64,000 nucleotides of DNA, from assembly GCF_023016085.1 (NCBI RefSeq), contig NZ_JALKBF010000001.1:1488001-1552000 (forward strand), given 5' to 3'. Positions 573-17,355 of the stretch are shown here, in pieces. The notes beneath the pieces were generated by a model that was not told the DNA's origin, did not search any database, and was given only the letters and a program-made list of their open reading frames with translations. Position numbers and translations under genes: made by a program. Every line of letters starts with the position of its first letter. The stretch's first letter is position 1. The stretch is from Aliiroseovarius sp. F47248L (GTDB lineage: Bacteria > Pseudomonadota > Alphaproteobacteria > Rhodobacterales > Rhodobacteraceae).

Positions 573-634
573 AGCACCTGTTAGAGTGCAGGATAGCAGC
601 TATTAACAAGAGTATTTATTGGAAGGGATGGATT

Positions 635-1402: not shown

Positions 1403-1407
1403 ATGAC

Positions 1408-1449
1408 CCCCATACGGACCCCCAACCTCTATGGGTATTCCGTATGGGG
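1408..1449. repeat. 11-bp perfect inverted repeat, possible terminator
   Basis: CCCCATACGGA (1408-1418) pairs perfectly with TCCGTATGGGG (1439-1449) across a 20-base loop, six bases after the stop codon of the membrane-protein gene. The position suits a terminator, but no T-run follows on either side, so an operator or protein-binding site is also possible. Confidence 0.45.
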
Positions 1450-1575
1450 AAACACTCTTGAAATCCGCTGAACATACCAGAACAAGAACCGGCCAATTAG
1501 CATCATGACTTCATCCGCTTTCGCTTCTTCACCCACCACCCCAAAATGTAAAATTAGCCTGCCCGGCTTACCCTG

Positions 1576-1935
1576 ATGCGCGTCTCAATAGATCATCATA
1601 CAATCCGCAAAGGATTGCTTCTGAAGAAGACATACTACGAGGTCCATCTCACCGTTGCCTTTACCCACGAAGAGAAACAGATCATTCGGCAAAGGGGACT
1701 CTTAAAAACTAAGCTTGTTGATCGAAGGCCAGCCAATGCTCGGGTGGATGATCGGGATGAGAAGTTCGAACTGCGCGTCGAACATCTGATGGATGGAAGG
1801 ACCGATCGGTTTCTTTGCGCCACGCCTTCGAAATCCAAAATCTACGAAGAAGATCTTTTGGAAATGTTGAGCCAGATGAAAGCGTGGCTGGACGATAATG
1901 CCGAAACTGGTACCCGAACTGTGGTTGAGTTCTGA
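1576..1935 (+). CDS. Hypothetical small protein, first gene of mobilisation module
   Basis: A 119-residue soluble protein rich in charged residues, with no signal peptide or membrane segment. I do not recognise the family. The N-terminal half contains strand-like stretches (TYYEVHLTVAFT) and an Arg/Lys-rich middle; the C-terminal part is helical (EDLLEMLSQMKAWLDD). Its TGA overlaps the ATG of the VirD4-like ATPase gene (shared A at 1935), so the two are probably translationally coupled and the protein may be an accessory factor of the DNA-transfer ATPase. The start has only a weak ribosome-binding site, so the true start could be slightly downstream. Confidence 0.6.
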   Translation: MRVSIDHHTIRKGLLLKKTYYEVHLTVAFTHEEKQIIRQRGLLKTKLVDRRPANARVDDRDEKFELRVEHLMDGRTDRFLCATPSKSKIYEEDLLEMLSQMKAWLDDNAETGTRTVVEF

Positions 1936-4010
1936 TGCAGCGTTCGGCGTTCGATGACCTCTTCAGCGGATCCGCAGCCTTCGTGATTGTCGCGGGCTTT
2001 CTGGTTCTTGCGATCATCGTGACACCGTTTCTGCTTCTGGGCGCAGCCCTCTACATCGGTATCCGAATGTACCGCGAAAGCCCGAAGCGTTTGGAACGTC
2101 TTGCCCGCGAAGAAACCGAGCTGCTGTACAATCACGCTCTGGCCGGGGACGTCCACCTGACGGAAGATGACGTCGATGCAGCGCTGGCACGTCACTGGCC
2201 ACCCGACATGCCGGAAGCACTGAAGATCCAGCTGCTGGAGATTGGCAAAGAGCTCTTCGTACAGGAAGGGCTGATGCCGGAAATCCCACCGCCACCGGCA
2301 CTCTGCAACACGGTCGAAGGTGCGCGCTATCGGGATATGCTGGCGCGGGTTGGTCAGGCTCGTAGTGACCGGGTGATGGTGTTGTCGGCCCTCGATGTGA
2401 TCTCGCAAAGCCTGGCCACGATTGCCGAGGCTGTGCCGCCAATTGATGGTGATGTTCTCGTCGAGGTCACGCAGTTCGTCCACCCGCTGGGGAACGCCGT
2501 CTCGAGCCTGATCGCTCCGTTCTTCCAGGACAACGATTACAACCATTTCAAGAAGCTTCGTGAACGCCTTGATGCCAATCTTCAGAAGACACACAGGTCG
2601 CAGCCGATCTTTCCGCGCGACTACAAAGGCGATGATGTGGTTGAAACCTACCTGTCCGGCACGGTTCTGAAAGAGCTCTTCCGACTGCGCACACCGTTCA
2701 CGATCCCCGAGAAAAACCGGTTCGAACACACGCATATCGTGGCAGGCTCCGGCCACGGCAAAACCCAGACGCTGCAATACTTCATCGTCAGGGATCTTAA
2801 GGATGTCGAGCGGCACGACAAATCCGTCATCGTGATCGACAGCCAGGGAGATTTGATCAATACGATCCTGAAGGCGAAGACTGTGCCGCCCGATCGGATC
2901 GTGCTGATTGATCCGGAGGACATCGGCTTCCCGGTCAGTCTGAACCTCTTCTCGGTTGGCCAGGAACGGCTGGAGCGCTATGACGATCTGGAGCGCGAGC
3001 GGCTGACCAACTCGATTATCGAGCTCTATGATTTTGTCCTTGGCTCGCTCTTGTCCGCAGGCATGACAGCAAAGCAAAGCGTTGTCTTCCGCTATGTCAC
3101 CCGGCTGATGTTCCACATCCCCGGTGCGACGATCCACACGCTGCGCGAGTTGATGGAACCAGGTGGCACTGACAAGTACCGCGAACACATCGAAAGGCTG
3201 GAGGGCACGCCTCGCCGTTTCTTTGAGACCGAATTCGACAGCAAGGAATTCACCAACACTAAAACCCAGGTGCTGCGCCGTCTTTATGGCGTGCTGGAAA
3301 ACCAGACCTTCGAGCGGATGTTCACGAACCCGCAATCGAAGTTCGACATGTTCACCGAGATGAACGCGGGCAAGCTTATCCTGATCAACACGTCGAAGAG
3401 CTTGCTGAAGGAACAAGGCACCGAGATTTTCGGGCGCTTCTTCATCGCGCTGATTGCTCAAGCCGCTCAAGAACGCGCCACGCTGCCGGACTACGACCGC
3501 TTGCCGGTGATGGTCTATGTCGATGAGGCACAGGACTACTTTGACCAGAACATTGGCGTCATACTAAGTCAGGCCCGCAAATACAAAGTCGGCATGATCA
3601 TGGCGCACCAATACCTGGGTCAGCTCTCAAACGGCCTTCAGGAGGCGTTTGAAGCCAATACGTCGATTAAACTGGCCGGTGGCGTCTCTGCGCGCGATGC
3701 GCGCGCTCTGGCGGGGCAGATGGCGTCCGGCGCAGAAAAGATTCAGGAACAGCCCAAGGGCACCTTCGCCACTTTTGTGCGCGGCCTGACTAAGAACGCT
3801 GTCCCGATCAGTTTCCCGTTTTTTGTTCTGGAGAACCTGCCGCGCGCGTCGAAGGATGAGATAAACGAGATCCGCGATCACAGCCGAAAAACCTATGCTG
3901 AACCATTGCGCAAAAGTGCTGAACATGACGCGCCACCGGAGAACGAGAAAGCAGAAAAACCCGAAGAAAAACAGGATGATGACCCAACATCCCGTTCTCC
4001 AGAGCTCTGA
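1935..4010 (+). CDS. VirD4/HerA-like DNA-transfer ATPase (type IV coupling protein)
   Basis: A 691-residue P-loop ATPase of the VirD4/TraD/HerA superfamily, which in conjugative elements brings DNA to the secretion channel or pumps it. A hydrophobic N-terminal segment (about residues 14-46) would anchor it in the inner membrane. Walker A is GSGHGKT at about 271-277 and Walker B is VMVYVDEAQD at about 525-534. Further motifs fit this group: VIDSQGD near 301 and MIMAHQYLGQL after Walker B. The last 40 residues are Lys/Glu/Pro-rich and look disordered. The start overlaps the preceding gene (TGATG), and the replication-relaxation gene follows after 11 bases. No relaxase is visible nearby, so the substrate is unknown; a role in mobilisation is inferred. 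Confidence 0.85.
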   Translation: MQRSAFDDLFSGSAAFVIVAGFLVLAIIVTPFLLLGAALYIGIRMYRESPKRLERLAREETELLYNHALAGDVHLTEDDVDAALARHWPPDMPEALKIQLLEIGKELFVQEGLMPEIPPPPALCNTVEGARYRDMLARVGQARSDRVMVLSALDVISQSLATIAEAVPPIDGDVLVEVTQFVHPLGNAVSSLIAPFFQDNDYNHFKKLRERLDANLQKTHRSQPIFPRDYKGDDVVETYLSGTVLKELFRLRTPFTIPEKNRFEHTHIVAGSGHGKTQTLQYFIVRDLKDVERHDKSVIVIDSQGDLINTILKAKTVPPDRIVLIDPEDIGFPVSLNLFSVGQERLERYDDLERERLTNSIIELYDFVLGSLLSAGMTAKQSVVFRYVTRLMFHIPGATIHTLRELMEPGGTDKYREHIERLEGTPRRFFETEFDSKEFTNTKTQVLRRLYGVLENQTFERMFTNPQSKFDMFTEMNAGKLILINTSKSLLKEQGTEIFGRFFIALIAQAAQERATLPDYDRLPVMVYVDEAQDYFDQNIGVILSQARKYKVGMIMAHQYLGQLSNGLQEAFEANTSIKLAGGVSARDARALAGQMASGAEKIQEQPKGTFATFVRGLTKNAVPISFPFFVLENLPRASKDEINEIRDHSRKTYAEPLRKSAEHDAPPENEKAEKPEEKQDDDPTSRSPEL

Positions 4011-4021
4011 TTCCTGCTAGC

Positions 4022-4918
4022 ATGCCGGGCATGAAGCAGACGGACAGCCTTGGCAGGTCAACATTCCACCACATAGCGCCTCAAACTGGCGTCAGGCCGA
4101 CGAATCGCGAGATCCTTTGGCTCAAGCATATTGAACGCCACGGCCCCCTATCATCGCAGTATCTCTATGAATTGACACGTGACACGCATCGCTGCAAAGA
4201 TACGGCGCTTCGGCAGATGCAGAAGCTGCGCGCGGGAGGTTTTCTTCGACTGCCTCAGCAACAACGAGCCACCGAACACTCTGATTTCAATCCTTACGTC
4301 TATGATCTGACCAAGGCAGCGAAAGAGCATCTGTTTGATCTGGGGCTAGCGGAACCGACCGTTCGTCCGACAGGCCATTGGTGGCATGGCTTTGCGACGT
4401 CATGTGTGACTAGCTCGATCGATATCACAGCGGCGCAACGCCGTGTTCGCTACATCCCAGCGCACACGATCCTCACCAAGCGGGGCGTAACGCTAGAGAT
4501 CCCGATGAAGCGCGGAAAATTGATACCTGATCAGTTGTTCGCACTCGACTACGGTGGCAGCTTCCGCGCATTCATGCTGGAGGTCGACCGTGGGACAGAG
4601 CCAATCAAATCCACAGCTGCAAGGAAATCGCTTGGCCGTTCGATCGATCAGTATCTTGAAGTGCTCGAACGTCAGCTACAAAAGTCGCACTATGGCCTGA
4701 AGGCAAACATGCTTGTTTTGTGGTTGTTCACAAGCCGGTCCCGACAGGCAAAATTCCTTGATGTTCTAAAGGAAAAATCACATCCCGCTGGAAGGGCAAT
4801 CGTTTCCCAAGCCGTCAATCCCGTGCGACTCTATAAGAACGTCAATGCCGAGCTAGTGCTAGGCGATTGGGCTTCAATTGGATCAAAGCTGTTTCAGATG
4901 ATCGACCTGCCTTCGTAG
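4022..4918 (+). CDS. Replication-relaxation family protein
   Basis: A 298-residue protein resembling the replication-relaxation family found next to VirD4-like ATPases on mobile elements. Residues about 25-95 read as a winged helix (TNREILWLKHIERHG, then CKDTALRQMQKLRAGGFLRL). The C-terminal half has the family's nuclease-like block: IPDQLFAL, then FMLEVDRGTEPI, then a conserved Lys and Tyr (KSLGRSIDQYLEVL). The Asp/Glu pattern recalls PD-(D/E)xK folds; that link is inference. ATG at 4022 or 4031 could be the start, and neither has a strong ribosome-binding site. It lies 11 bases after the ATPase gene, is probably in one operon with it, and converges on hsdR. Confidence 0.75.
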   Translation: MPGMKQTDSLGRSTFHHIAPQTGVRPTNREILWLKHIERHGPLSSQYLYELTRDTHRCKDTALRQMQKLRAGGFLRLPQQQRATEHSDFNPYVYDLTKAAKEHLFDLGLAEPTVRPTGHWWHGFATSCVTSSIDITAAQRRVRYIPAHTILTKRGVTLEIPMKRGKLIPDQLFALDYGGSFRAFMLEVDRGTEPIKSTAARKSLGRSIDQYLEVLERQLQKSHYGLKANMLVLWLFTSRSRQAKFLDVLKEKSHPAGRAIVSQAVNPVRLYKNVNAELVLGDWASIGSKLFQMIDLPS

Positions 4919-4947: not shown

Positions 4948-7776
4948 CTAGTCGATACCGTCGATGAAAGTCTCAACGAAATCCTTGATTTTGCCGATCA
5001 CGCGTTCCGCGATGCTACCGCGTTCACGGAGCTTCGGGCGCGTTTCCATGATGCCGATGACCTCGTCGCGCATTGGCGGCTTTTCTGTGAACAAGTAGTT
5101 CCCGATGACCCTTTCGAGACCTTCGGCATCCAGTCCTTCGTCCTCCGAAAGCTGCCGGATCGCTTGGCGCTTTTGCTCGGCCCAATAGGTTTCAAATTCA
5201 TCGCCGACATCGGCCTCGGCTGGGATGTTCGGGAAGAGCTCAGCAATGAACCGGGCGATGAGTTCTTTTTTGCTGCGCAGTTGGGCTTCCGTGTCCAGGA
5301 TATCCATGATCGCTTTGCGTTGTTTCGCCTGATCTTCCGGTTTGGAATCCCGCATGTTTTGCAGCAGGGCGATGATATAGCTGACGTTGATTTTATCGCG
5401 GCTGATCAGTTCAACTTCAAAGTCGATATCGTCAAGGATCGACACCTTTTCCTTCTCGTGGTCACTGCGGACCTTGTCGTAGAGATCGAGATACTTGCTC
5501 CTGAAATCTGCGAATAACTGCTCGTTAATTGGCAGGTCATCAAAGCTGAATTGGGTGAAGCAATCCAGGACGTTTTTCACGCGGATTACCTCTCGGAACG
5601 CCTGGATGAACCTGGCTTCGTCCTCCTCAGTTAGAAGGTCATCCACGCTTTCAACAGTCGGCGTTACCTCGAACAGGTTGTCGACCGCCTCCTGGAATTT
5701 TTCGATGTAGTCCTCGTATGGGGCGAGGACGATGTCCTCGATTGCATCCTTGTTGGCAAAGAGTTCGATCGCTTGATCGGTGGCCGGTTTCAGGTTGCGG
5801 AAGCACACCACGTTCCCTTGGGATTTTTTCTGACCCAAGGTTCGATTGGTCCGCGAATATGCCTGAAGCAGTCCGTGGTATTTGAGATTTTTGTCGACGT
5901 AAATTGTGTTCAGCGGTTTGCTGTCGAAACCGGTCAAGAACATGTTCACGACCAGCAGGATGTCGAGCTGCTTCGCTTTCACGCGCTTTCCGATATCCTT
6001 GTAGTAGCCATAGAAATTGTCGGTCGAGAAGTTGGTGCCGAACATGCTGTTGTAATCATCGATATACTCATCAAGCTTGTCGCGGCTGTGTTTGTTGATC
6101 GGGGTATCGTCGCATCCATCAGGAATGATGTCGGTATCGATGAAACCAGCAACTTCCTGGTCATCCTCGTTGGCTTGGTATGAGAAGATCGTACCAATGC
6201 GCAGATTGTGCCCTCCTGCGCCTTTTTTAGCCCGTAGCAGCTCGTAATAGGCGCAAAGGGTCTTCACGTTGCTAACGCAGAAAATGGCCGTGAATTCGCG
6301 GCTGTGTGTCTTCCGGGCATGGTTGGCAATGATGTAGTCAGATACCTTGTCCAGTCGCTCCGGCGCTTCCATCACTTCGGCGGTGTCAATCGCCTCGACT
6401 TCGATATCAGCAATTTCGTCCTTTTGCTTCACCGTCCGGATGTACTCAACTGAAAACTTCAGAACGTTCTCGTCACGGATCGCATCAGTGATGACATATT
6501 TGTGCAGACAGTCGCCAAAGAGGTCCTTTGTCGTGCGTTTGCCAAGTGCGTTCTTGGAGGCGTTCTTCGCGAAGATCGGCGTGCCAGTGAATCCGAACAT
6601 CTGGACGTTTGGGAAGTACTCAACAATCCGGCGATGCGTGTCGCCAAACTGGCTGCGATGGCACTCGTCGAAAATGAACACCATGTGCTTGTCCTTAAGC
6701 GCATCCATCTTCTCTAGGTGCTTCTGTCGACTGATCGCAGTGTTCAGCTTCTGCAAAGTGGTCACGATGATCGGCGTGTCGTCGGTGAACTGCTGGACCA
6801 GGCTGCGGGTGTTGTTGGTGCCATCAATGCTGCCAGGGCTGAAACTGTTGAACTCCTTGATCGTCTGGTAGTCGAGGTCCTTACGGTCAACGACAAAAAC
6901 CACCTTGTGGACGTTCGGCGACTGGGTGAGGATCTGCGCCGTCTTGAACGAGGTAAGAGTCTTGCCTGATCCAGTCGTGTGCCAGATGTACCCGTTTTTC
7001 TCGGTGTTCTTGACCCGCTCAACGATCGCTTCGACCGCATAGTACTGGTAGGGCCGAAGCGCCATCAAAGTTTCATCGCTCTCATTCATAACGATGTACT
7101 TGGTGATGATCTTCGACAGCTGACACTTTTCAAGGAAGGCCTCGGCAAACTCGGACAGTTGCGCGATCTTTTTGTTGTCTTCATCGGCCCAGAAGAACGT
7201 CTGCTTGAAGTCGCGCTTATGGATTGGGTTGTTGGCGTAGTACTTGGTGTTGACCCCGTTCGAGATCACGAAAATCTGGATGTAGCCGAAGAGCCCATAG
7301 CCCGCCGAAAACGAGTGGCGGTGATAGCGGTTAGTCTGGTTAAACGCCTCTTTCATCTCAAGGCCACGACGCTTTAGCTCGATCTGCACGAGCGGCAAGC
7401 CGTTGACCAACAGCGTCACGTCATAGCGGTTGGTGTACTTGCCGGTCATGGTGACCTGGTGCGTCACCTGGTACTGGTTCTTGCACCACTGGATCTGATC
7501 GATCAGCTCGATGTAACCAGTCGTGCCGTCATCCCGTGTGTAATCGATCTTGTCGCGCAGGATTTTGGCCTTCTCGAAGATTTTACCCTTGGCCAGCTTG
7601 TTGAGAACCTGATTGAACTCTGCATCGCTGAGCGTCATGCCGTTGTGGATTTCGAGCTGGGCCTTCAGATTTTCGACCAGGGCCGTTTCGTCAGGAATCG
7701 AGACCTTCGAAAATCCCAAGGTTTCAAGTTGGGCGACGAGGTTGTTTTCGAGCTGTTGTTCTGACTGGGTATTCAT
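4948..7776 (-). CDS. hsdR: Type I restriction enzyme, R (motor/nuclease) subunit
   Basis: A 942-residue HsdR. With HsdM and HsdS it cuts DNA lacking the host methyl mark after ATP-driven translocation. The N-terminal nuclease domain shows D119 (NRYDVTLL), then E133 and K135 (IELKRRG), followed by the conserved QTNRYHRHS block. The superfamily 2 motor has Walker A TGSGKT at about 268-273, DECH at 370-373, and FGFTGTPIF as motif III. Length and domain order are normal, with no break. It is the last gene of the minus-strand operon, 8 bases after the Abi-like gene. Because hsdM carries a stop codon, the intact HsdR may be idle in this strain. Its 3' end converges on the replication-relaxation gene. 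Confidence 0.95.
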   Translation of the reverse strand: MNTQSEQQLENNLVAQLETLGFSKVSIPDETALVENLKAQLEIHNGMTLSDAEFNQVLNKLAKGKIFEKAKILRDKIDYTRDDGTTGYIELIDQIQWCKNQYQVTHQVTMTGKYTNRYDVTLLVNGLPLVQIELKRRGLEMKEAFNQTNRYHRHSFSAGYGLFGYIQIFVISNGVNTKYYANNPIHKRDFKQTFFWADEDNKKIAQLSEFAEAFLEKCQLSKIITKYIVMNESDETLMALRPYQYYAVEAIVERVKNTEKNGYIWHTTGSGKTLTSFKTAQILTQSPNVHKVVFVVDRKDLDYQTIKEFNSFSPGSIDGTNNTRSLVQQFTDDTPIIVTTLQKLNTAISRQKHLEKMDALKDKHMVFIFDECHRSQFGDTHRRIVEYFPNVQMFGFTGTPIFAKNASKNALGKRTTKDLFGDCLHKYVITDAIRDENVLKFSVEYIRTVKQKDEIADIEVEAIDTAEVMEAPERLDKVSDYIIANHARKTHSREFTAIFCVSNVKTLCAYYELLRAKKGAGGHNLRIGTIFSYQANEDDQEVAGFIDTDIIPDGCDDTPINKHSRDKLDEYIDDYNSMFGTNFSTDNFYGYYKDIGKRVKAKQLDILLVVNMFLTGFDSKPLNTIYVDKNLKYHGLLQAYSRTNRTLGQKKSQGNVVCFRNLKPATDQAIELFANKDAIEDIVLAPYEDYIEKFQEAVDNLFEVTPTVESVDDLLTEEDEARFIQAFREVIRVKNVLDCFTQFSFDDLPINEQLFADFRSKYLDLYDKVRSDHEKEKVSILDDIDFEVELISRDKINVSYIIALLQNMRDSKPEDQAKQRKAIMDILDTEAQLRSKKELIARFIAELFPNIPAEADVGDEFETYWAEQKRQAIRQLSEDEGLDAEGLERVIGNYLFTEKPPMRDEVIGIMETRPKLRERGSIAERVIGKIKDFVETFIDGID

Positions 7777-7784
7777 ATCGTCGG

Positions 7785-8411
7785 CTATTCATTCGTTTCT
7801 AATGCTTGAAATTCATCAAAATAGTTTTCGTAAGCGTCGTAGTCATGCTGATAAAGTAGCCAACTGTAGTACGCACCGCCAATCCGATCACCCTTGGCAT
7901 CAAGCCACTTGTTGAAACCGCCTTCGTCTGAGTGATCGTCGTAGTTCATTTTACCAGAAGACATCTCCAAAATGTGGAAGTAGTAAGCCGCAAAGGATAG
8001 GGCCAAGTTCAACGACATCGCAGCATGCGCTGGGCTAAGCTCCTTCTTCGAGGGCAAATGCCCGTGGGAAATGTCGCCACTTGTGCTGCGGTTGCCTAGA
8101 ATGCGCCCAGCAGGAGTGATCAACGCAGAGAACACTTCTTCATAGAAGTCGGGATCATGCTCATCGAAAAAAGCTTTGGCTCCCTTCAAAATAGCGGTGA
8201 TTTTGGCTGTCTCGATCTTACTGTGAACAGGTGCTTCAGCAGTATTTGCCCAAGCATTCTTGCCCACACATTCGTAGATCGTATTGGCGAGGTCGATCTG
8301 CTTACCCACAGTCGATGCGCCATTGTAGGCTTCTTCTAGTGGCACCCGAAAGGCCTTGGCCTCTGGAAAGAAATCCTTCAAACGATCGTAAACTGTAAAA
8401 GCATCCAACAT
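7785..8411 (-). CDS. Abi-C-like protein embedded in hsd operon
   Basis: A 208-residue protein lying between hsdS and hsdR. The middle (RILGNRSTSGDISHGHLPS, about residues 104-122) followed by a helix (SPAHAAMSLNLALSFAAYYFH) matches the pattern of the abortive-infection C-terminal (Abi-C) domain, in which R, G, GD and HG residues precede a hydrophobic helix. The N-terminal part is helical and unrecognised. The start codon overlaps the hsdS stop (TAATG) and hsdR follows 8 bases later, so all three are probably translated from one mRNA. No catalytic RNase or toxin motif is clear. It may be an accessory of the restriction system or a separate defence gene using the hsd promoter. The family call is from pattern memory only. 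Confidence 0.7.
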   Translation of the reverse strand: MLDAFTVYDRLKDFFPEAKAFRVPLEEAYNGASTVGKQIDLANTIYECVGKNAWANTAEAPVHSKIETAKITAILKGAKAFFDEHDPDFYEEVFSALITPAGRILGNRSTSGDISHGHLPSKKELSPAHAAMSLNLALSFAAYYFHILEMSSGKMNYDDHSDEGGFNKWLDAKGDRIGGAYYSWLLYQHDYDAYENYFDEFQALETNE

Positions 8412-9703
8412 TATACAAACATTTGCTGTAGTAGGCCCTTTTTGAAATCTTGGGCAGCGAACAGCTCATCCTCGACAAGACTGATCTTGGTGTCGATGGC
8501 AGATAGAAAATTTGCAATTTTTCTTTGTTCGTCAGGGTGCGGAAGCTCTAACGTCAAGGTAGCCAGGTTACCCTTAGAGACACCAAGAACCGAAATGCCT
8601 TGAGCGATGCGCATAGTCTGTCTTCGCATGGTCGCGCTCCTGAGTAGGTAGCCAGCGAATCCAAGAACCAATTTCCAACCCTTTGGTCGAGCAATGTAGG
8701 TATGAAGACCTGCAACCAGTGGGGGGTCACTTAATTCTACAATCTCGATGGCTTTGCCTATGTCTGTGTAGTCTTCGGATGCGTCAGCAATGACAACATC
8801 ACCTGGTTTGCAAAAATCCTCTTCTGCGAAATCAGCTCTAAGAGAACCCGAGATGTAGGGCACCTTTTCGAGCCCTTGCCTGAAGTTGGCATGGAATTTA
8901 GAATGGATATCGCCGTAGTGAATGTTCTGAACTTCGCCGTTCGCACCATAATTCAGCTTGTCCCGCGACAAACTGTTGGTGCGAACCCAGTCAAACGTTT
9001 CCCCAACCGTCGTTTCCGCCCAATCAGGAAAGTCGTTGCCCTGGCCGTCTTTAAAACGGAGTTTCTGGGTGAAGAGCTGTTGCATGCAGCCCTTTTTGTA
9101 GTCTTCCAGCAGCGCCTTTTTGCGCGTCAACTGCTCAATCTTGGTCTCAACTGTTTCAAGATACGAGGATATTTTGTCTTGCTCTCGATCCTTCGGAAAC
9201 GTGAGAGGGAAATTTTCAAGTATTCTTTGGCTCAAATTGTTGATGTTTGTTCCGCCACCGGCAACGTCCAAATAGCTTCGAAATCTCTCAGAGCGAAATA
9301 GATGTCCCGCAAATTCGCTCGAAACACGCGAGCCCTTGCGGCGGCCTCTGATCGTAAAACCTGAGAACGACATCTTTTCGGAAATTGGGCCTATTTGCAG
9401 GCAACGACCAATTAGTGCCTTGTTTCCGTTTGAACGGACGAACAACAAGTCACCTTCGCTCAGCAGATCATTTTCGCGAACGTTGCCTCGGATTGTGATC
9501 TCGGCAAGCTTCGACGCTTCGGAAAGCAAGGTGTTATCTTTAAAATCCCCAACACCAACGACCTTTATTTTCTCGCCAACAGATCCGCGCGTAAAGTTGA
9601 GCCCATTTCGATAGTCGAACTCCTCGTGTGACAGGGCCGTCTCCCATTCATCCGAAAACTCAGGTAAACGCAGTTTCGGTGTGTTTTCTACTGCCACACT
9701 CAT
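8411..9703 (-). CDS. hsdS: Type I restriction-modification specificity subunit
   Basis: A 430-residue HsdS, which chooses the bipartite DNA target for methylation and cutting. It has the usual two target-recognition domains, each followed by a conserved helical spacer. The first spacer ends in KKGCMQQLF near residue 206, the second in KKGLLQQMF at the very C-terminus. Within the spacers are the repeated phrases KISSYLETVETKIEQL and KIANFLSAIDTKISLV. Its ATG overlaps the hsdM stop (ATGA at 9700-9703). The recognition sequence cannot be read from the protein. No repeats suggesting domain shuffling were seen inside the gene. Confidence 0.93.
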   Translation of the reverse strand: MSVAVENTPKLRLPEFSDEWETALSHEEFDYRNGLNFTRGSVGEKIKVVGVGDFKDNTLLSEASKLAEITIRGNVRENDLLSEGDLLFVRSNGNKALIGRCLQIGPISEKMSFSGFTIRGRRKGSRVSSEFAGHLFRSERFRSYLDVAGGGTNINNLSQRILENFPLTFPKDREQDKISSYLETVETKIEQLTRKKALLEDYKKGCMQQLFTQKLRFKDGQGNDFPDWAETTVGETFDWVRTNSLSRDKLNYGANGEVQNIHYGDIHSKFHANFRQGLEKVPYISGSLRADFAEEDFCKPGDVVIADASEDYTDIGKAIEIVELSDPPLVAGLHTYIARPKGWKLVLGFAGYLLRSATMRRQTMRIAQGISVLGVSKGNLATLTLELPHPDEQRKIANFLSAIDTKISLVEDELFAAQDFKKGLLQQMFV

Positions 9704-11034
9704 AGCGCAAAGGGGGCTTTAATGCCGAGCTCATCGCAAAATCCCGCGATGGTCTTGTCGGTGGTTTTCATATCTTTCTCGAGCGTGTGAAGTGCAGTTG
9801 CAACCGCATCGAGATCAATCTCTTCCTCTTGCTCAAACGTATCCACGTATCGCGGGATATTGAGGTTGTAGCCGTTTTCGGCAATCTCCTTGAGCGGAGC
9901 CGGATAGGCGTATTTCTCGACCTTTTCACGGCGCTCATAGGTCTCGACTATTTTGCGAACGTACTCGTCAGTCAGAGCATTCTGGTTGCCGACCTTCTCG
10001 AATTCTGCGCTGGCGTCGATGAACATGATGTTGTCATCGTGAACGCGGCACTTTTTAAGAACAAGGATGCAGGCCGGAATCGAGGTTCCATAGAACAGGT
10101 TTGGCGGAAGGCCTATGACTGCATCCAGGTAGTTCATTTCTTTGATGATGTATTCGCGGATCGTTCCCTCAGCAGCGCCTCGGAAAAGCACACCGTGCGG
10201 CAGCACAATAGCAGCAGTGCCGTTGTCGGCGAGCTGGTAGATCATGTGCTGAACGAAGGCGAAATCAGCCTTCGAACTCGGAGCAAGTTTGCCATACTGG
10301 CTGAAACGTTCGTCCGTTTCGTTGAGCGGATTATTCGCCCCTTTCCACTTCGCGGAGAACGGCGGATTGGCGACCACTGCCTCGAACCGTTGATCGAGGT
10401 GTTGCGGCTCTTCGAGGGTATCTTCCTGCTTGATGTCGAACCGGCTGAAATGCACATCGTGCAGGATCATGTTCATCCGCGCGAGGTTGTAGGTCGTTCG
10501 GTTTAGCTCCTGACCATAGAACGAACCGACATCGGCCTCTTTGGCGATGCGCAGGAGCAAAGAACCTGATCCACATGCCGGGTCATAGGCTGACTTGATC
10601 CGTTTCTTGTCCAGGGTAACAATCTTGGCGAGGATCTTTGAAACCTGCTGCGGAGTATAGAATTCACCGGCTTTCTTGCCCGCACCGGACGCGAACTTCG
10701 AAATCAAGTACTCGTAGGCGTCGCCCAAGACATCCGCGTCAACTTTGCCGAGTTCGAAATCGATCTTGTCGAGGTGCTTCAGAACACGCGCAATTAGCGA
10801 GTTCCGCGCATCCACGCTGCGACCGAGCTTGGTGCTGTTGAGGTCCAGGTCCTCGAACAGTTTATTGAAGTCATCCTCACTGTCAGTCCCCATCGTGCTT
10901 TGCTCGATGGAATTGAGGATCGCCTGAAGGTCTTCCAGGATGAAGTTGCTTTTGCCTTTGGTGTCGGCATTACCCTTGTCGCTAATTGCCGTGAAAAGTT
11001 CGTCCGGTTGTAGGAAATACCCCAGCTTGTCCAA
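9700..11034 (-). CDS. hsdM: Type I DNA N6-adenine methyltransferase, main part (split hsdM)
   Basis: A 444-residue open frame carrying the catalytic part of HsdM. The S-adenosylmethionine motif is DPACGSGS at about 151-158 and the catalytic motif is NPPF at about 223-226. The block AGEFYTPQQVSKIL, typical of the family, precedes motif I. The frame begins directly after an in-frame TAA (11038-11040). Its first possible initiator is a TTG at 11032-11034 with no good ribosome-binding site, and it lacks the N-terminal helical domain, which lies in the same frame upstream at 11041-11268. Joined, the two parts would be about 521 residues, the normal HsdM length. Whether this part is translated on its own is unknown. 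Confidence 0.8.
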   Translation of the reverse strand: MDKLGYFLQPDELFTAISDKGNADTKGKSNFILEDLQAILNSIEQSTMGTDSEDDFNKLFEDLDLNSTKLGRSVDARNSLIARVLKHLDKIDFELGKVDADVLGDAYEYLISKFASGAGKKAGEFYTPQQVSKILAKIVTLDKKRIKSAYDPACGSGSLLLRIAKEADVGSFYGQELNRTTYNLARMNMILHDVHFSRFDIKQEDTLEEPQHLDQRFEAVVANPPFSAKWKGANNPLNETDERFSQYGKLAPSSKADFAFVQHMIYQLADNGTAAIVLPHGVLFRGAAEGTIREYIIKEMNYLDAVIGLPPNLFYGTSIPACILVLKKCRVHDDNIMFIDASAEFEKVGNQNALTDEYVRKIVETYERREKVEKYAYPAPLKEIAENGYNLNIPRYVDTFEQEEEIDLDAVATALHTLEKDMKTTDKTIAGFCDELGIKAPFAL

Positions 11035-11037
11035 AGA

Positions 11038-11268
11038 TTATTCTTTGATCGCCTCAATGTCGTCCTGGTCGGTTACTTTTGCGTAGTCCTTCACGTCCTC
11101 GGTTTCGAGAAGCTTGTTCCCGAAGAGGTGCTGTTTTTCGGATAGGTACTTGTAAAAAATGAACCCGAGAATGTAATCGCGAAACTCATCGGCATCCATC
11201 TTCCCACGGAGTTCGTTGGCGATGTTCCAGAGTTGCTGCTCGAGCCGCTGTTTTTGTGCTTCAGTCAT
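11038..11268 (-). pseudogene. hsdM: HsdM N-terminal fragment ending at an in-frame TAA
   Basis: Seventy-six codons encode the standard HsdM N-terminal helical domain (WNIANELRGKMDADEF, then FIFYKYLSEK). The frame reads ATC AAA GAA TAA TCT TTG GAC AAG and continues without a shift into the rest of HsdM (LGYFLQPDELF). HsdM relatives usually have Glu at this place (pattern IKEE or IREE followed by S/A-L-x-x-LGYF), so one G-to-T change of GAA to TAA would explain it. This is a nonsense interruption, not a frameshift. The likely outcome is loss of methylation and of restriction, unless there is readthrough, reinitiation at TTG or a sequencing error. No strong ribosome-binding site is seen before the ATG at 11266-11268. 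Confidence 0.8.
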
Positions 11269-11388: not shown

Positions 11389-11398
11389 AGCTCCTGTA

Positions 11399-11596
11399 TC
11401 AGGAGTGTCGTTTGGGTTCTTCGCGACTATCCAGCCGTTGCTGAAGCCAGTCCAGCACCTCACACTCGACCCATCCCACTCTGTTCGGGCCCAGCTGTAC
11501 CCGCTTAGGGAATTGGCCTGCCTTTTCCAGCCGCGCGATGTGTTGCGGCGAGTATAGGACCAGCTCCTTGAGCTGGCGCTTTGAAAGTATCCTCAT
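11399..11596 (-). CDS. AlpA-family DNA-binding regulator/excisionase-like protein
   Basis: A 65-residue winged helix-turn-helix protein of the AlpA/MerR-like type found beside integrases, where it acts as transcription activator or recombination directionality factor. The pattern MRILSKRQLKEL, then SPQHIARLEKAGQFPKRV, then GPNRVGWVECEVLDWLQQRL fits the family along its whole length. The ATG at 11594-11596 is chosen because GGAGA lies 7 bases upstream; an upstream ATG at 11623 has no such site. A 12-bp palindrome (11620-11631) lies just upstream and may be an autoregulatory operator. It ends in a strong terminator. A truncated second copy of its 5' region lies next to the integrase at 15,521-15,610. 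Confidence 0.85.
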   Translation of the reverse strand: MRILSKRQLKELVLYSPQHIARLEKAGQFPKRVQLGPNRVGWVECEVLDWLQQRLDSREEPKRHS

Positions 11597-11863: not shown

Positions 11864-14365
11864 ATGTTCGAAAAGACAGCAACTCTTATTTTTTCAGTTG
11901 TTGCAGGATCGTGTTTTCAAACCCCGGCGTTTGCGGACATTGCTGTTGAGTTCTTGTATCATAACTCTACTACGACCCGAAGTGCGACTAAGCCAAAAAT
12001 CGGTCAGCTGCTCTACAGTACGCCTTTCCCCACAATGGACCACCCTGCATCCTATCTCATTCCAGGAAATTTGGCCGAGCACTTATTTTTACTCCCAACA
12101 GCAATGGAGCGATCGCCTCTACAGTCACCTGATTTTTTGGAGGTTTTTCATCAGCCCTACTTTCAGGTTGTTCCCAGATCAGCAATAGATGAAACACCTC
12201 TAGACACATTTGATTGGAACCTTTCTACGGAAGATACCCAAAATAGTTGGTTAGAAAATGAACCGACGATTTCAGAATCTCAGAGAACCAGTAAATATCA
12301 CCTTCTCGATGAAATTCTAGGCTGGGAAAAAATTCGAAATGCCTTCGATGCACCTCGGTTTACTCGAGCAAGAAGCAGTCGGGAGATTTTTTGCTCAGCC
12401 AATTTGAGGAAAAGGTATCCAAGATTGTCACTCATTAGCAACGTGGCTGACGATTTCTTCACTACTTCTAACTGGGCGGACGATGGTTTCAATTCATGGG
12501 CTGCTGCTTTAGTCGATCATGAAGCGTCAATCTGGATAGCCCTAGATTCTGAAGACCTACCTTTCAGTAGCTTGGCCTCCTTACAACGAAAGCAGTTTGA
12601 AGCATCTGACCCGTTTGAAGAATTTCTCATTCGCAACTGCCTCATCTCACATCTGAAGGAGATTTGGAAAGGAACTCCAACAGTCACTGATTCAAAACTC
12701 TTCTCGACGCCCGCGATTGTTCCTTGGGTGATGATGTTTGAATGGTATGACCACTCTGCTGGCAAGTTCCTGATAAGGAGCGGAACAAAGCCAGAAGAAC
12801 TAGAGATGACGATTGAAAATGTCGATACGATATTGTCCTATCTTGAAATCCTTGAAGACTCAGAAATCCGAGACGCACTAGACCGTTCGTTCTTGAAATT
12901 CCTTTCAGCTGTGTATGACACTCCCGAAGACGTTTCTGTCAGAACCTTAGCGAATGAATTAAGCTCGCTGAGAACCAAATTGATGGCGCGAAAGCTATCG
13001 CTCAATATGATTTCAGAATTGCTGTATAGCATCAGCAGACTGGATAATGACAGGTCTCCATCTGTCGCCAACTATGGTACCAACACAAGTGATAAAAACG
13101 GAATCATTGAACAGTACGTATTAGAGCAAATTAGCGCATTTAAAATCCGTTACGGTGGCGTTGGGAAAGTGGCAAACGAAATTAAATCGGCTTTCCCCAC
13201 GGCAGATCAAAAGTTCCTAGACAGTATTGCGCTTTCAATGCAGTTCGAATTGGACTCTCGGGTTGAGTTGTTCAGTCAATTTGCCAAATGCCTTTATTGG
13301 GAACTTTTTCCCGTCAAACCATTCGACATCGAGCTCTACCATTCAGCTCTACAGAGAGTTAACTTTTTTGAAAACCCAAGTCCAAACCCAAGACGCCGAT
13401 GGTCGGATTTGGTTCAACCCATCTCAAGTAATCGCTTTGTTGTTGATTTCGATAGACCTCTCTTAAGTTACTCTACTCGAAGGTTTCCGGGGTATCGAAG
13501 GAACAGGGATAGTGGTCTATGTGGCGTTATAGCCAACCGGAAACTTCCAACTCGAAATTTCCCCGAAATATTCGACTTAGCGAATCTTATGCATGATCAG
13601 AAATGGCTGGATACTAAGCAACGAGACTTTGTCAGAAATACCTTTCTCCAACTGGATTTAGTGTCACTCACCCCGCCACCAAACGCGAACCTATTGCCGC
13701 GGCTGACCATTGATCGTGAGTGGGAAATCCAATCCCAGAGACAGATTGCACAGGTTCTAGACCGTTCGTCCAGAGAAGTGAGTAGCAGACTGCGAAGCGT
13801 TATTGCGGAATATGACAAGGAATTGGGCTTGGAAACAAACAACGTTCCTGTTGAAGCCTACACTCTTTGGAATGCAGGCAACTCCGGCGCCAACGTGAAA
13901 AACTTCTTTGCGAATGAAACCCTACATGGAGCTTTCGCTGCGGACTTTTTTGTCACTCTTCAAGGTGCGAAAAACAGCGGAATGCCCAGATCAAACCATT
14001 TCCAAGCGATCGTTTGGTTCGAAACTGCGAGTTCAGGAAAGCGCTGTCTCTACTTCGACCAAGACAAAAAGAGAATTGCACTCGGGGTGCAGGGTACCTC
14101 AGAAAACTGCATCACTTTTCAAGTCAGTCGAGATGTGAATCGTGTTGGGTTATTGAGGGTTAATGCCACACTTGCTTTGAACTCAGCTTTGTTTCTCATT
14201 TTGGATGATGCGATTGTAGACCCCGTAGAAACCTGGTTGTTCGCTGAGCGAAATCTGGTTCCTAGGCGCGTTTACCGACGCGTACTTGATCCTGTCCAGC
14301 CGGTCATGAGAGGTTTCTACACAGCTCTAAAAGATGAAACTTTCGTTCTGGAGGTCCTCCGTTGA
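11864..14365 (+). CDS. Unknown 833-residue protein, signal-peptide-like N-terminus (cassette gene 1)
   Basis: A large protein I do not recognise. The start is supported by AGGAGGTGG 5 bases upstream. The first 24 residues look like a Sec signal peptide: FEK, a hydrophobic core (TATLIFSVVAG), then a cleavage-like TPAFA-D; an AGSC sequence inside could instead be a weak lipobox. If real, the product is periplasmic or surface-exposed. About residues 130-480 are mainly helical, with many Trp, Phe and acidic residues. About 690-800 read as alternating strands (FQAIVWFET, KRCLYFDQD, RIALGVQG, CITFQVS) like a beta-sandwich. No P-loop, nuclease, protease or methyltransferase motif was found. Base composition is clearly more AT-rich than in the neighbours, suggesting separate transfer. 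The next gene overlaps by 32 bases. Confidence 0.75.
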   Translation: MFEKTATLIFSVVAGSCFQTPAFADIAVEFLYHNSTTTRSATKPKIGQLLYSTPFPTMDHPASYLIPGNLAEHLFLLPTAMERSPLQSPDFLEVFHQPYFQVVPRSAIDETPLDTFDWNLSTEDTQNSWLENEPTISESQRTSKYHLLDEILGWEKIRNAFDAPRFTRARSSREIFCSANLRKRYPRLSLISNVADDFFTTSNWADDGFNSWAAALVDHEASIWIALDSEDLPFSSLASLQRKQFEASDPFEEFLIRNCLISHLKEIWKGTPTVTDSKLFSTPAIVPWVMMFEWYDHSAGKFLIRSGTKPEELEMTIENVDTILSYLEILEDSEIRDALDRSFLKFLSAVYDTPEDVSVRTLANELSSLRTKLMARKLSLNMISELLYSISRLDNDRSPSVANYGTNTSDKNGIIEQYVLEQISAFKIRYGGVGKVANEIKSAFPTADQKFLDSIALSMQFELDSRVELFSQFAKCLYWELFPVKPFDIELYHSALQRVNFFENPSPNPRRRWSDLVQPISSNRFVVDFDRPLLSYSTRRFPGYRRNRDSGLCGVIANRKLPTRNFPEIFDLANLMHDQKWLDTKQRDFVRNTFLQLDLVSLTPPPNANLLPRLTIDREWEIQSQRQIAQVLDRSSREVSSRLRSVIAEYDKELGLETNNVPVEAYTLWNAGNSGANVKNFFANETLHGAFAADFFVTLQGAKNSGMPRSNHFQAIVWFETASSGKRCLYFDQDKKRIALGVQGTSENCITFQVSRDVNRVGLLRVNATLALNSALFLILDDAIVDPVETWLFAERNLVPRRVYRRVLDPVQPVMRGFYTALKDETFVLEVLR

Positions 14366-15413
14366 AGTCGATACATTGCCGAAAGCGCGCGAGATGATCG
14401 ATACTGCCTTCGCAACACTCTTAATCAGCGAACTGTTTGCGGTCGATGGTATGAGAATTCCGTTTAGCAATATTCCGGTTCAACTGGTTTTGTCGGAAGA
14501 AGCAGCTGATGCCCTGGAAGTTGACATTGATTTCGACTCGAAAGGAAACCTGGACCCAAAAGGTTACATCTGCCTGGCCGTACTGAATTGTGGACCTCAC
14601 CCCGGAGAGGAAGCCGAAATTAGCACGTCACGAGCTACAGCCGAATTGCCTCCATCGATCACAAGTGACACCACTTCTTTAGCCGCGACTGGTGTCTACG
14701 AGTTTGTTCGCAGTGTTACGAAGTCTACACTTGAGTTTTTTGGCTACCAAAACCTGGATCAGAATGTCGCAGTTTTGAACCGTCAGGAAGTGTCTTGGCT
14801 AGGGGTACCATATTCGATGCCAGCGGAGCTATTACAGAGTGATGCCTTAGGTCTGTTCCCTTGGAACACAGGAAGCACCGATTGGACCTGGTCGAATCGT
14901 ATCCAAGGAATACGTTCGGTGAACGAATTTGGATCCGACTTCGATAACTCTTTCAAACAAGATACGATTGGGTTTCTTGGAAAGTACTGGAACTTTTCCA
15001 CCAAACCCGATGAGAGTGACTTCGTATCGTTGCCTGAGTTTGGGCTTGGAGCAGATTTCGAGAATGCGCCAATGGTCAGGGCGAAAGTAGAAGAGTTCAT
15101 CCAGAAATCTTACTCTATTTCAGAGGCCTTTGGGTCCAGTGAGTTTGTCTATATCTATGAAACCAAAGACAACAGAGCAATTACCAATGTAACCTTCGAC
15201 AGTGGGTTATTTTCTTTGGGCAAGTCATCTCTATTTCGTGAGGCAATATGCTATGAAAATAGCTGCAGTTTTCGATTTAGTATCCGAGACCGGTTCGAGG
15301 AACCAGTCCGCATTGAGGGGTTGGAATTCGGACAGCCGTACGGCATTTTCCACGAGTTTGCCGCCCCGGTCCCTTACACACGTGACAACATAGCAATAGA
15401 GGGGTTTTTTTAG
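14334..15413 (+). CDS. Unknown 359-residue acidic protein (cassette gene 2)
   Basis: An unrecognised acidic protein with no signal peptide or membrane segment. The ATG at 14334 lies inside the end of gene 1; ATG at 14394 (MIDTAFATLL) is an alternative start. A GGAGG at 14350-14354 is too far from either start to decide. Overlap with gene 1 indicates coupled translation. The N-terminal part has strands around a short acidic loop (VQLVLSEEAADALEVDIDFDSKG, residues about 49-71) and a Cys-containing strand (ICLAVLNCGPHPGE). The middle is rich in Trp, Asp and Ser (NTGSTDWTWSNRIQG). The C-terminal part is beta-rich with CYENSCSFRFSIRD, whose Cys pair could bond. Low GC as in gene 1. The pair looks like a two-component unit of unknown function. 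Confidence 0.7.
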   Translation: MKLSFWRSSVEVDTLPKAREMIDTAFATLLISELFAVDGMRIPFSNIPVQLVLSEEAADALEVDIDFDSKGNLDPKGYICLAVLNCGPHPGEEAEISTSRATAELPPSITSDTTSLAATGVYEFVRSVTKSTLEFFGYQNLDQNVAVLNRQEVSWLGVPYSMPAELLQSDALGLFPWNTGSTDWTWSNRIQGIRSVNEFGSDFDNSFKQDTIGFLGKYWNFSTKPDESDFVSLPEFGLGADFENAPMVRAKVEEFIQKSYSISEAFGSSEFVYIYETKDNRAITNVTFDSGLFSLGKSSLFREAICYENSCSFRFSIRDRFEEPVRIEGLEFGQPYGIFHEFAAPVPYTRDNIAIEGFF

Positions 15414-15550
15414 TCGTTAGGAACAAGTTGACCATTTTGGAAATCTGAAGCTTTTTGTTCAGATCGAAATGATGCCCCCAAAACCCGGCATCTCGAGGCA
15501 AAAAAAGTAGAGGATAAACCGCTGAGTTGGCGGTTTGTAGGTATCCTCAT
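15410..15550 (-). pseudogene. Truncated alpA copy next to the integrase
   Basis: The minus strand from ATG 15548-15550 reads MRIPTNRQL, matching MRILSKRQL of the intact alpA (six of nine identical), with similar DNA upstream. After about ten codons the likeness ends at a hairpin, and the frame runs on as unrelated sequence to a stop at 15410-15412. It is best read as the remains of an alpA gene that stood downstream of the integrase before the cassette was inserted or alpA was duplicated. Confidence 0.6.
15501..15536 (-). terminator. Terminator-like hairpin downstream of integrase
   Basis: AAACCGC (15516-15522) and GCGGTTT (15530-15536) form a perfect 7-bp stem with a 7-base loop. On the minus strand a run of T (complement of 15500-15506) follows about 9 bases after the stem. 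It should end the integrase transcript before it runs into the opposing cassette. The hairpin sits exactly where the right-hand alpA copy loses similarity. Confidence 0.55.
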
Positions 15551-15610
15551 AGCGATGCCTCCAAGAGTGAAGAGCATTGCTATGCTCAAGAGTAGACCAA
15601 AGCCTAGGCA
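15521..15610. repeat. 90-bp alpA 5' region, right copy of cassette-flanking direct repeat
   Basis: The diverged partner of 11,567-11,656 (70 of 90 bases identical, no gaps). The best block is GTATCCTCAT at 15541-15550, and the block AGCCTAGGCA at 15601-15610 is also well kept. It ends 12 bases before the integrase stop codon. The two copies differ too much for a recent duplication. Confidence 0.8.
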
Positions 15611-15621
15611 GCCCGAGTATA

Positions 15622-16728
15622 TTAGGCCGAGTTTAACCTAGCAATGTACTTGTCATATTCGGCAACCGCCGCCTGCATTTCCTGCTGGTACGAATGTCGA
15701 TTATAAACTGCAGCGACACCGCTGATCGTTCCGGATGTGTGATTTAACAGTTTCTCTGTGACATGGACGGGTGTCCCAATTTTTGCGTGGATCGTCGCAA
15801 ATGTTCGCCGAAGATCATGAAGAGTAAAATGTGACAGCCCGGTTTCCGACAACATTCGCCTGGTAGATTTTCCAAACCCATTGAACGGCTTATCGTCAGC
15901 CGTAGTACCAAAGACGTAGGTTGCGCCTCCTTCTACTTGGCTGATCAAATCAAGCGCATTTTTTCCAAGTGGCAAAACATGTTCTCGCTTGTTTTTAGTT
16001 TTGCGCCCTGGGAGTATCAGCCGTTTTCGATCGATGTCTTGCCACTCCAGATTGGCAATCTCTCCTTTTCGTTGTCCTGTAAAAACAAGGAGTTGGACAA
16101 TCTGGCCAAACCGATCCGTGTTTTCACGGCAGAAGAAAAGCAGTGCCCTCAACTCATCGTCGTTCAAAACGCGTTCTCTCGGTGTCATGCGGTGCGGGCG
16201 CCTATGAGGCGAAAGTGGGTTACTGGTTAGATACCCTCGGCGAACAGCCCAGTTGAAAAACACCTTGAAAGTGGTGAAGGCATAATTCTGACTGGATGGA
16301 CTTTGGGTTTGCTTGGCAATCTTTATTAGAACATCATTCCCAGTAATCTTGCTGATGGGGCCTGCAAAAGAAATCCCGCGCAAGTATAGATTGTAACCCT
16401 TCATGGTGGTGGGACGCACTCTGCTTTCGCAATCTGAAAGATAAGCCTCAATCACGGTCTGGCATTCATGTTCCGGGGTCTTACTGGGCTCCAAGGCTTG
16501 AGTTGAGAGAAGCAGTTTGGCCTGCTTGCGAGCATTCGCTAGTGAGAGTTCTGGGTAACGCCCCAAGGTCTTTCGCCTTCGTTTCTCACCCAGAAGCACG
16601 ACATACGACTTGCTGCGAGTTGAACAACGAATTCCAAAGTTTGGCGTCAGTTCATCCCAGTAGGTCACCTGCCCATTAGATGCGAATGGGAGCTTCTTCA
16701 CGGCCAAGTCAGTCAGACGGAGTTTCAT
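15622..16728 (-). CDS. int: Tyrosine site-specific integrase of the element
   Basis: A 368-residue phage-type tyrosine recombinase that would cut and rejoin DNA at the tRNA-Asn attachment site. The N-terminal arm-binding domain (DUF4102-like; KLRLTDLAVKKLPF, then TLGRYPELSLANARK) is followed by a core-binding domain (about 88-170) and the catalytic domain. Catalytic residues visible are R220 (TGQRKGEI), a lysine in the 242-248 hairpin, H304 and R307 (HDLRRTF), H330 (LLNHTSG) and tyrosine 342 (VYNRHSY; 347 is the other candidate). Length and motifs are intact, so the element may still be mobile. It reads away from the attachment site. Short direct repeats AGGCTCA at 16732 and 16743, just upstream of the start, may bind its N-terminal domain. 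Confidence 0.95.
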   Translation of the reverse strand: MKLRLTDLAVKKLPFASNGQVTYWDELTPNFGIRCSTRSKSYVVLLGEKRRRKTLGRYPELSLANARKQAKLLLSTQALEPSKTPEHECQTVIEAYLSDCESRVRPTTMKGYNLYLRGISFAGPISKITGNDVLIKIAKQTQSPSSQNYAFTTFKVFFNWAVRRGYLTSNPLSPHRRPHRMTPRERVLNDDELRALLFFCRENTDRFGQIVQLLVFTGQRKGEIANLEWQDIDRKRLILPGRKTKNKREHVLPLGKNALDLISQVEGGATYVFGTTADDKPFNGFGKSTRRMLSETGLSHFTLHDLRRTFATIHAKIGTPVHVTEKLLNHTSGTISGVAAVYNRHSYQQEMQAAVAEYDKYIARLNSA

Positions 16729-16869: not shown

Positions 16870-16916
16870 AACTGTTAATCAATTGGTCGTAGGTTCGATC
16901 CCTACCGCCGGAGCCA
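16870..16916 (+). other. Attachment site: 3' fragment of a tRNA-Asn(GTT) gene
   Basis: The sequence holds the anticodon loop with GTT (ACTGTTAATCA), the T-arm GTAGG-TTCGATC-CCTAC and the acceptor 3' strand CGCCGGAG ending in CCA. This matches the 3' part of a tRNA-Asn gene. The bases before 16870 do not form a D-arm or 5' acceptor strand, so the gene is not complete here. This is the duplicated target left at the right end of an element that entered the 3' end of tRNA-Asn. The functional tRNA should lie at the other end, left of the window. The crossover point is probably within the T-arm or anticodon stem. Confidence 0.85.
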
Positions 16917-17355
16917 AATTCTCAAGCTACCCATCTGAAGTCCCTAGAAACAGGGGCATACGTGTCCCTCGCAACTATTCAAAGCTTGAAGCCAATGGGG
17001 CTTGCTAGCCCGCGGACACGGCGCAGTAAGTGGGTAGTCCTACGAGGTGAACTCGTAAAACTGGTTCATTCGGCCAGGGAAACACCGTCTCAGATCAAAA
17101 AAGTGAAGGTGATCAAATAGCGCCTTAGGCCTGTTCGGCATCCTGTGTAGGCAGTAATTGCGCACTTGTTGAAGGGCTGATGGCCGCTCTGCCTGTGACT
17201 CTGACGCCACAATATTTCAATAGACAACACAATTGTGAAATATTTAGTCGCCACTCCCCGTTCATAATCTGTTAACATGTGAATACCGAAAGGTCTCTGG
17301 TGGGGAAAATGGTGCGTCATATTCAGGCGCGAACCGCAATAGCTGGAGTGGGGTA
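16917..17355. other. Non-coding stretch right of the attachment site
   Basis: No gene is convincing here. One plus-strand frame stays open from the tRNA fragment to a TAG at 17107-17109 but has no start with a ribosome-binding site, and its codon use does not resemble that of the core genes. The stretch also holds the inverted repeat listed at 17211-17244. It may be remnant DNA next to the insertion point. Confidence 0.4.
17211..17244. promoter_or_regulatory. Nested inverted repeats, possible operator
   Basis: AATATTTCA (17211-17219) pairs with TGAAATATT (17236-17244), and inside lies the perfect 10-bp palindrome CACAATTGTG (17228-17237). The AT-rich nested symmetry suggests a regulator-binding site. 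The next downstream candidate gene starts at 17356. Confidence 0.35.

What the first reader, a model, noticed from the sequence alone, without database searches (positions are those of the whole stretch)
11864..15413. Low-GC two-gene cassette of unknown function inside a defence-bearing element
Two overlapping genes (833 and 359 codons) have a strong ribosome-binding site, an upstream inverted repeat and much lower GC than their neighbours. They sit between the alpA regulator and the integrase, next to a type I restriction system, where elements usually carry exchangeable defence or fitness cargo. Neither protein shows a motif I can name. The first seems to have a signal peptide, so the system may act in the envelope or periplasm, for example as a phage-adsorption or DNA-entry block, an anti-competitor device or a surface factor. 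Defence is inferred from location only.
Basis: partly seen in the sequence, partly recalled or inferred. Interest (0 to 1): 0.82.

Follow-up and report, generated by a model that had tools for sequence, protein, structure and literature searches.

The report
Orphan gene pair in defence island
Two intact, overlapping bacterial genes without recognisable relatives sit in a swappable cargo slot of a mobile, defence-carrying chromosomal island, so they may be an unrecognised anti-phage system, but that role is inferred from position only.

Summary
The two genes are real and intact: P1 (11864-14365, 833 codons) and P2 (14334-15413, 359 codons), overlapping by 32 nt. At the sensitivity available neither has a relative: Pfam, NCBIfam, PADLOC, PHROGs and PDB sequences give nothing credible, and in a word-filtered search of 5.8 billion proteins each finds only itself. 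Single-sequence AlphaFold models failed (mean pLDDT 33 and 31), so fold and function stay open.

The setting is clearer. The pair is cargo of a 28.9 kb island bounded by an exact 48-nt repeat of a tRNA-Asn 3' end. The island also carries Gabija (outside the window) and a type I restriction system whose hsdM has an in-frame stop. The pair lies between the integrase and an intact alpA; a truncated second alpA lies beside the integrase at the distance seen for intact alpA in two related elements. In 6 of 7 related elements that could be judged this slot holds no gene; one holds an unknown gene plus a PIN-domain gene.

Best reading: a coupled two-protein anti-phage or anti-element system of unrecognised family (0.48).

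The parts
11864..14365 (+). P1, 833 aa, protein without recognised relatives; first gene of the cassette
14334..15413 (+). P2, 359 aa (the protein database holds it as 339 aa, from a later start), protein without recognised relatives; overlaps P1 by 32 nt including P1's stop codon
11788..11816 (+). promoter-like match overlapped by an 8-bp inverted repeat (11791-11815): possible operator
   Evidence: repeat found in 4.45% of simulations, so weak
11399..11596 (-). intact alpA (65 aa, Phage_AlpA), inside the Rfam Trans44 match 11366-11630
15353..15584 (-). second, truncated alpA with leader (Trans44 model match below the family cut-off; its low end overlaps the end of P2); start codon 15548-15550, 71 bp from the integrase stop codon
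   Evidence: (32.7 bits, E 1.7e-6)
15622..16728 (-). tyrosine integrase
16871..16918 (+). att repeat, 48 nt identical to G000:C1:1475996-1476043 at the 3' end of tRNA-Asn
4948..11268 (-). type I restriction system: hsdR, a 208-aa gene with a sub-cut-off Abi_C match, hsdS, and hsdM with an in-frame stop at 11038-11040; cargo of the neighbouring slot
57..4918 (+). island backbone: short ORF (called RuvC-like from recall, no Pfam match), membrane protein, HerA/VirD4-like ATPase (Pfam matches below cut-off), Replic_Relax protein

Best explanation
P1-P2 is a two-gene cargo operon of a mobilisable, tRNA-Asn-integrated island, captured between the integrase and the alpA regulator. Most likely it is an anti-phage or anti-mobile-element system of an unrecognised protein family: a co-translated pair in which the large P1 senses or scaffolds and the small acidic P2 is its partner, driven by its own promoter. 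Shown: the genes, their overlap, the island and its boundary repeat, the slot and the alpA remnant, and defence cargo in this and related islands. Inferred: the defence role (from position), joint action (from overlap and co-orientation), promoter control (motif match). The division of labour between P1 and P2 and a cytoplasmic site of action are guesses.
For: Island of 28,923 bp, G000:C1:1475996-1504918, with an exact 48-nt repeat at a tRNA-Asn 3' end. Gabija near its left end: GajA 675 bits, GajB 585 bits. Type I genes in the neighbouring slot. alpA remnant 71 bp from the integrase stop, against 71 (L050) and 68 bp (L047) for intact alpA. The integrase-alpA gap holds no ORF of 70 aa or more in 6 of 7 related elements with a recognised full-length integrase; L049 has a 354-aa gene and a PIN-domain gene there. 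L047, integrase 64% identical, has a NotI-like restriction pair and a PDC-S60-matching protein between Replic_Relax and alpA. P4 satellites have an integrase-adjacent hotspot of anti-phage systems (PMC9122126, passages seen). P1 and P2 are intact beside an interrupted hsdM.
Against: No sequence sign of a defence domain in either protein and no usable structure. Only one instance of the pair, so no statistical link to defence genes. The island also carries genes of unclear role: deaminase, CYTH, methyltransferase. The only other filled example of this exact slot (L049) could be a toxin-antitoxin pair. 13 of 21 alpA loci had no recognised integrase in the stretch fetched, and 3 of 6 integrase relatives had no Trans44 match nearby, so the slot rule rests on few elements.
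Confidence: 0.48

Rival explanations
1. An addiction or maintenance module: the pair stabilises the island in the manner of a toxin-antitoxin system, without a dedicated anti-phage role.
For: Next to the integrase; overlapping pair; operator-like repeat over the promoter match; the other filled slot (L049) contains a PIN-domain gene.
Against: 833 and 359 aa are large for a classical pair (recalled); no toxin or antitoxin family match.
Confidence: 0.15
2. An envelope or secreted factor: P1, perhaps with P2, is exported and blocks phage adsorption or DNA entry or acts against competitors.
For: Hydrophobic run at 6-18 and AFA at 22-24 of P1; in P2 an equally hydrophobic run that is near the N-terminus of the 339-aa form.
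Against: Neutral n-region in P1, a glutamate inside the run of P2, no lipobox in either, no surface-protein family; P1 ranks only 6th of 42 window ORFs for N-terminal hydrophobicity.
Confidence: 0.14
3. An element-encoded function: transfer, anti-restriction or integration control of the island itself.
For: It lies between alpA and the integrase.
Against: No credible relative of P1 or P2 in any locus fetched, L047 and L050 included; lower G+C than the backbone ATPase gene (0.566).
Confidence: 0.1
4. Metabolic or niche cargo unrelated to conflict, or a module no longer in use.
For: No defence domain is visible; hsdM in the same island is interrupted, so parts of the island may be decaying.
Against: Both long frames are intact; no metabolic family match.
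Confidence: 0.13

Closest known systems
P4-like satellite hotspot between psu and integrase (Rousset et al. 2022, PMC9122126; passages seen)
   Same: Small cargo slot beside the integrase of a mobile element, with different systems in different elements, many anti-phage.
   Different: Different backbone (HerA/VirD4-like ATPase, Replic_Relax, AlpA); slot bounded here by alpA and a truncated second alpA; cargo without recognised family.
Gabija (GajA/GajB)
   Same: A two-gene module in the same island.
   Different: P1-P2 matches no Gabija or other PADLOC profile.
Type I restriction-modification
   Same: Neighbouring cargo of the same island.
   Different: No profile in common; opposite strand.
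AlpA-regulated genomic islands in tRNA genes (class recalled)
   Same: Integrase next to an alpA-family regulator, integration at a tRNA gene.
   Different: alpA is duplicated here, one copy truncated, with cargo between the copies.

Membership tests
Cargo module of an integrase-adjacent exchange slot | Lies between conserved genes of a mobile element | tested here: met
   Between integrase and alpA
Cargo module of an integrase-adjacent exchange slot | Absent or replaced by other genes in related elements | tested here: met
   Of 21 loci with an alpA frame, 7 had a recognised full-length integrase: 6 have no ORF of 70 aa or more in the gap (one, L011, with the integrase turned round), L049 has a different pair; 13 had no recognised integrase and L088 only a 57-aa fragment
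Anti-phage defence system | Protects against phage in a challenge | not testable with these tools
   Needs an experiment
Anti-phage defence system | Member of a described defence protein family | tested here: not met
   PADLOC: 0 families for either protein, limit E 5
Anti-phage defence system | Family recurrently found beside known defence genes | tested here: inconclusive
   One instance only; it lies with Gabija and type I genes
Toxin-antitoxin pair | Toxin or antitoxin family match | tested here: not met
   Pfam and NCBIfam: none
Secreted or envelope protein | Signal peptide or lipobox | tested here: inconclusive
   Hydrophobic runs in P1 (6-18) and P2 (25-37), AFA motifs, no lipobox; no predictor available
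P-loop NTPase | Walker A followed by an NTPase domain | tested here: not met
   P1 has no such string; P2 has GLFSLGKS at 291-298 with 61 residues behind it and no NTPase profile match

The most novel reading that the evidence does not exclude
P1-P2 founds a new two-protein anti-phage family unrelated to any known defence protein, carried in an alpA-island slot of roseobacter-type bacteria that collects uncharacterised defence systems.
Probability: 0.3. Interest if true: 0.72.

Novelty: new variant of a known kind. Interest (0 to 1): 0.47.

Why it matters
If the reading holds, the integrase-alpA slot and its neighbour between Replic_Relax and alpA are defined places to look for unknown defence systems, as the psu-int slot is in P4 satellites. 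P1-P2 would be an extreme case: a 3.5 kb intact operon with no detectable relatives, showing how much of the cargo pool is unsampled.

Tried and rejected
Family libraries: Pfam (limit E 10), PADLOC, NCBIfam (0.1), PHROGs and PDB sequences gave nothing credible; the best were PHROGs at 0.31 and 0.41 and PDB at 0.89 and 0.76.

Protein searches: only self for P1 (words from its first 500 residues), P2, and P1 490-833 at E up to 10. Searches scored only the 7988 and 7997 candidates sharing most words, one search scored 4090, so distant relatives can be missed.

tblastn: P1 no match in plasmids or phages, its last 333 residues none in plasmids; P2 none in phages and in plasmids 2 Haloarcula records at E 6 and 7, judged chance. 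Scans of contig collections with peptide patterns: 5, 1, 52, 25 and 9 stretches matched a pattern, none encoding a relative.

Whole genomes: P1 2 of 295 family and 2 of 398 phylum genomes; P2 2 of 385 class and 1 of 295 family genomes (E up to 0.01) and 2 of 21 genus genomes (E up to 0.1). One in each is the window's own genome. The four others are short stretches, 24-29% identity, E 0.0024 to 0.061 per genome, which hundreds of genomes give by chance. The one in G174 lies in a 275-aa frame that reads to me like an alpha/beta hydrolase (no family scan); L016, L017 and L018 were looked at only by phmmer. P1 was not searched as such in the set of 21 genus genomes.

Structures: AlphaFold without alignment, mean pLDDT 33.2 and 31.3; no fold search was run because such models give meaningless matches. 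A resemblance of P1's C-terminus to a beta-sandwich of glycosyltransferases was a recalled impression without profile support. P1 and P2 are not alike and have no internal repeat found by BLASTP. A Walker-A-like string in P2 was rejected for lack of room behind it.

Dropped from the slot survey: Trans44 places in G303 (2), G184 and G064; three integrase relatives (L048, L051, L052) without a Trans44 match in the stretch. L094 was included but has no alpA frame. The hotspot islands of congeners (L053-L058) were fetched and compared only with window proteins, not annotated.

Full report
What was reported is there. P1 (11864-14365, 833 codons) and P2 (14334-15413, 359 codons) are long open frames on the + strand, overlapping by 32 nt. 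Simulated sequence of the same composition never exceeded 261 stop-free codons in 1000 trials. P1 has a strong ribosome-binding site. An 8-bp inverted repeat lies over a promoter-like match; such a repeat turns up in 4.45% of 2000 simulations, so it is suggestive only. G+C is 0.451 and 0.472, well below the chromosomal genes to the right (0.56-0.60) but only a little below the integrase (0.490), hsdS (0.483) and the 208-aa gene (0.478).

The proteins have no recognised relatives. No family in Pfam, NCBIfam, PADLOC or PHROGs matches credibly, nor does a PDB sequence. In a database of 5.8 billion proteins each finds only itself, and so does P1 490-833. Genome searches gave the window's own copy plus, in four of five searches, one weak match at chance level (none in 91). 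The limits matter: the protein search passes on only candidates that share exact five-residue words, the collection scans need exact short peptides, and each genome search covered at most 398 genomes. 'No relative' here means no close or moderately distant relative in what was searched. AlphaFold without an alignment failed on both (mean pLDDT 33.2 and 31.3).

The setting was worked out beyond the window. The 48 nt at 16871-16918 are identical to G000:C1:1475996-1476043, at the 3' end of a tRNA-Asn gene. Taken as att sites, they bound an island of 28,923 bp. Near copies of this repeat also lie within some 2-25 kb of the same tfoX-like neighbour in several congeners. The left end of the island, outside the window, carries a clear Gabija pair (GajA 675 bits, GajB 585 bits), a T5orf172/MUG113 protein, a deaminase, a CYTH protein, a methyltransferase and a serine recombinase. 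Then follow backbone genes and the type I restriction genes. hsdM has an in-frame stop at 11038-11040, so that system may be inactive, or the stop may be a sequencing error.

The slot carries a scar. An intact alpA (11399-11596, minus strand; Phage_AlpA 41.3 bits) lies to the left of the cassette. Between P2 and the integrase lies a second alpA start with its leader, truncated and diverged. The Rfam Trans44 model, whose match covers alpA and its leader, also finds this copy (32.7 bits, E 1.7e-6, below the family's cut-off). Its start codon is 71 bp from the integrase stop codon. Where an intact alpA follows the integrase in the same direction in related elements, the distance is 71 (L050), 68 (L047), 97 (L012, L084) and 316 bp (L081). 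L047 has the integrase nearest to this one (64% identity). So the remnant probably marks the former place of alpA, and the cassette, with or without the second alpA, was inserted there. The two leaders are 72.6% identical; the intact one is closer to those of L050 (89.6%) and L047 (84.9%). This fits a later arrival of one copy but does not prove an order of events.

Related elements were surveyed from loci fetched by integrase and Trans44 matches. Of 22 loci hold an alpA frame. In 7 of the 21 a full-length integrase was recognised; 13 had none in the stretch and one (L088) only a 57-aa fragment. In 6 of the 7 no ORF of 70 aa or more lies between integrase and alpA (in L011 the integrase is turned round). 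In L049 a 354-aa gene and a PIN-domain gene lie there. Left out of this survey were four Trans44 places (two in G303, one each in G184 and G064), and three of the six integrase relatives had no Trans44 match in the stretch. In the neighbouring slot, between Replic_Relax and alpA, six elements have no gene (L011, L012, L081, L082, L083, L086) and two are filled: the window with its type I genes, and L047 with a NotI-like restriction pair and a 1067-aa protein matching PDC-S60. L049 has a GmrSD/NsnA-like gene and a cytosine methylase beyond alpA. No ORF of 80 aa or more in the fetched loci is a credible relative of P1 or P2 (best 16.0 bits).

Mechanism. The position argues for conflict-related cargo, as in the integrase-adjacent hotspots of P4 satellites (PMC9122126, passages seen). 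The overlap argues for coupled translation and joint action. I put 0.48 on an anti-phage or anti-element pair, with P1 as the large sensing or scaffold component and P2 as partner; that division is a guess. An envelope role is possible: P1 has a hydrophobic run at 6-18 and AFA at 22-24, and P2 an equally hydrophobic run at 25-37 that would be near the N-terminus of its 339-aa form. Against it stand the neutral n-region of P1, the glutamate in the run of P2, the lack of a lipobox, and P1's rank of 6th of 42 window ORFs in N-terminal hydrophobicity. Lack of homology is no argument against defence: DefensePredictor reports 3,140 clusters of predicted defence proteins without detectable homology to a known one (PMC13092281, passages seen). 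The four paper searches did not list a paper on this pair, but it has no name to search for.

Verdict. The find is a good test case rather than a demonstrated new system.

Noticed in passing
11366-11630 (-), also L047, L049, L050 and others: Rfam family Trans44_sRNA (RF02649), an sRNA of Ruegeria pomeroyi seen on a Northern blot (PMC4809877, passages seen), covers an AlpA gene: the frame is open (61-66 codons) in all 8 copies other than the remnant translated, and an alpA frame was found in 21 of 22 loci. It may be the alpA messenger and leader rather than, or as well as, an sRNA.
   Followed up: partly
11038-11040 (-): In-frame stop at codon 77 of hsdM, with the reading frame continuing on both sides; the type I system may be inactive, or the stop a sequencing error.
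   Followed up: partly
L039:7017-10934: Gabija pair (GajA, GajB) near the left end of the same island, outside the window.
   Followed up: yes
L039:11067-13430 (-): Three overlapping genes, deaminase, CYTH domain and methyltransferase: an unusual combination, possibly another cargo system.
   Followed up: no
L047:15047-18247: 1067-aa metallophosphatase protein with a STAND-type NTPase match and PADLOC candidate PDC-S60, in a related island of another genus.
   Followed up: partly
L049:1598-3086: A 354-aa gene without family match followed by a PIN-domain gene, in the same integrase-alpA slot.
   Followed up: partly
G099:C19:81468 and 92155 (L092, L086): Two Trans44/alpA copies in the same orientation 10.7 kb apart with other genes between them: possibly the same kind of capture between alpA copies.
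   Followed up: no
alpA leader, upstream of 11596 (-): A perfect 12-bp palindrome GCATCGCGATGC in 14 of the 17 leaders aligned; it is changed in the remnant, L049 and L092.
   Followed up: partly
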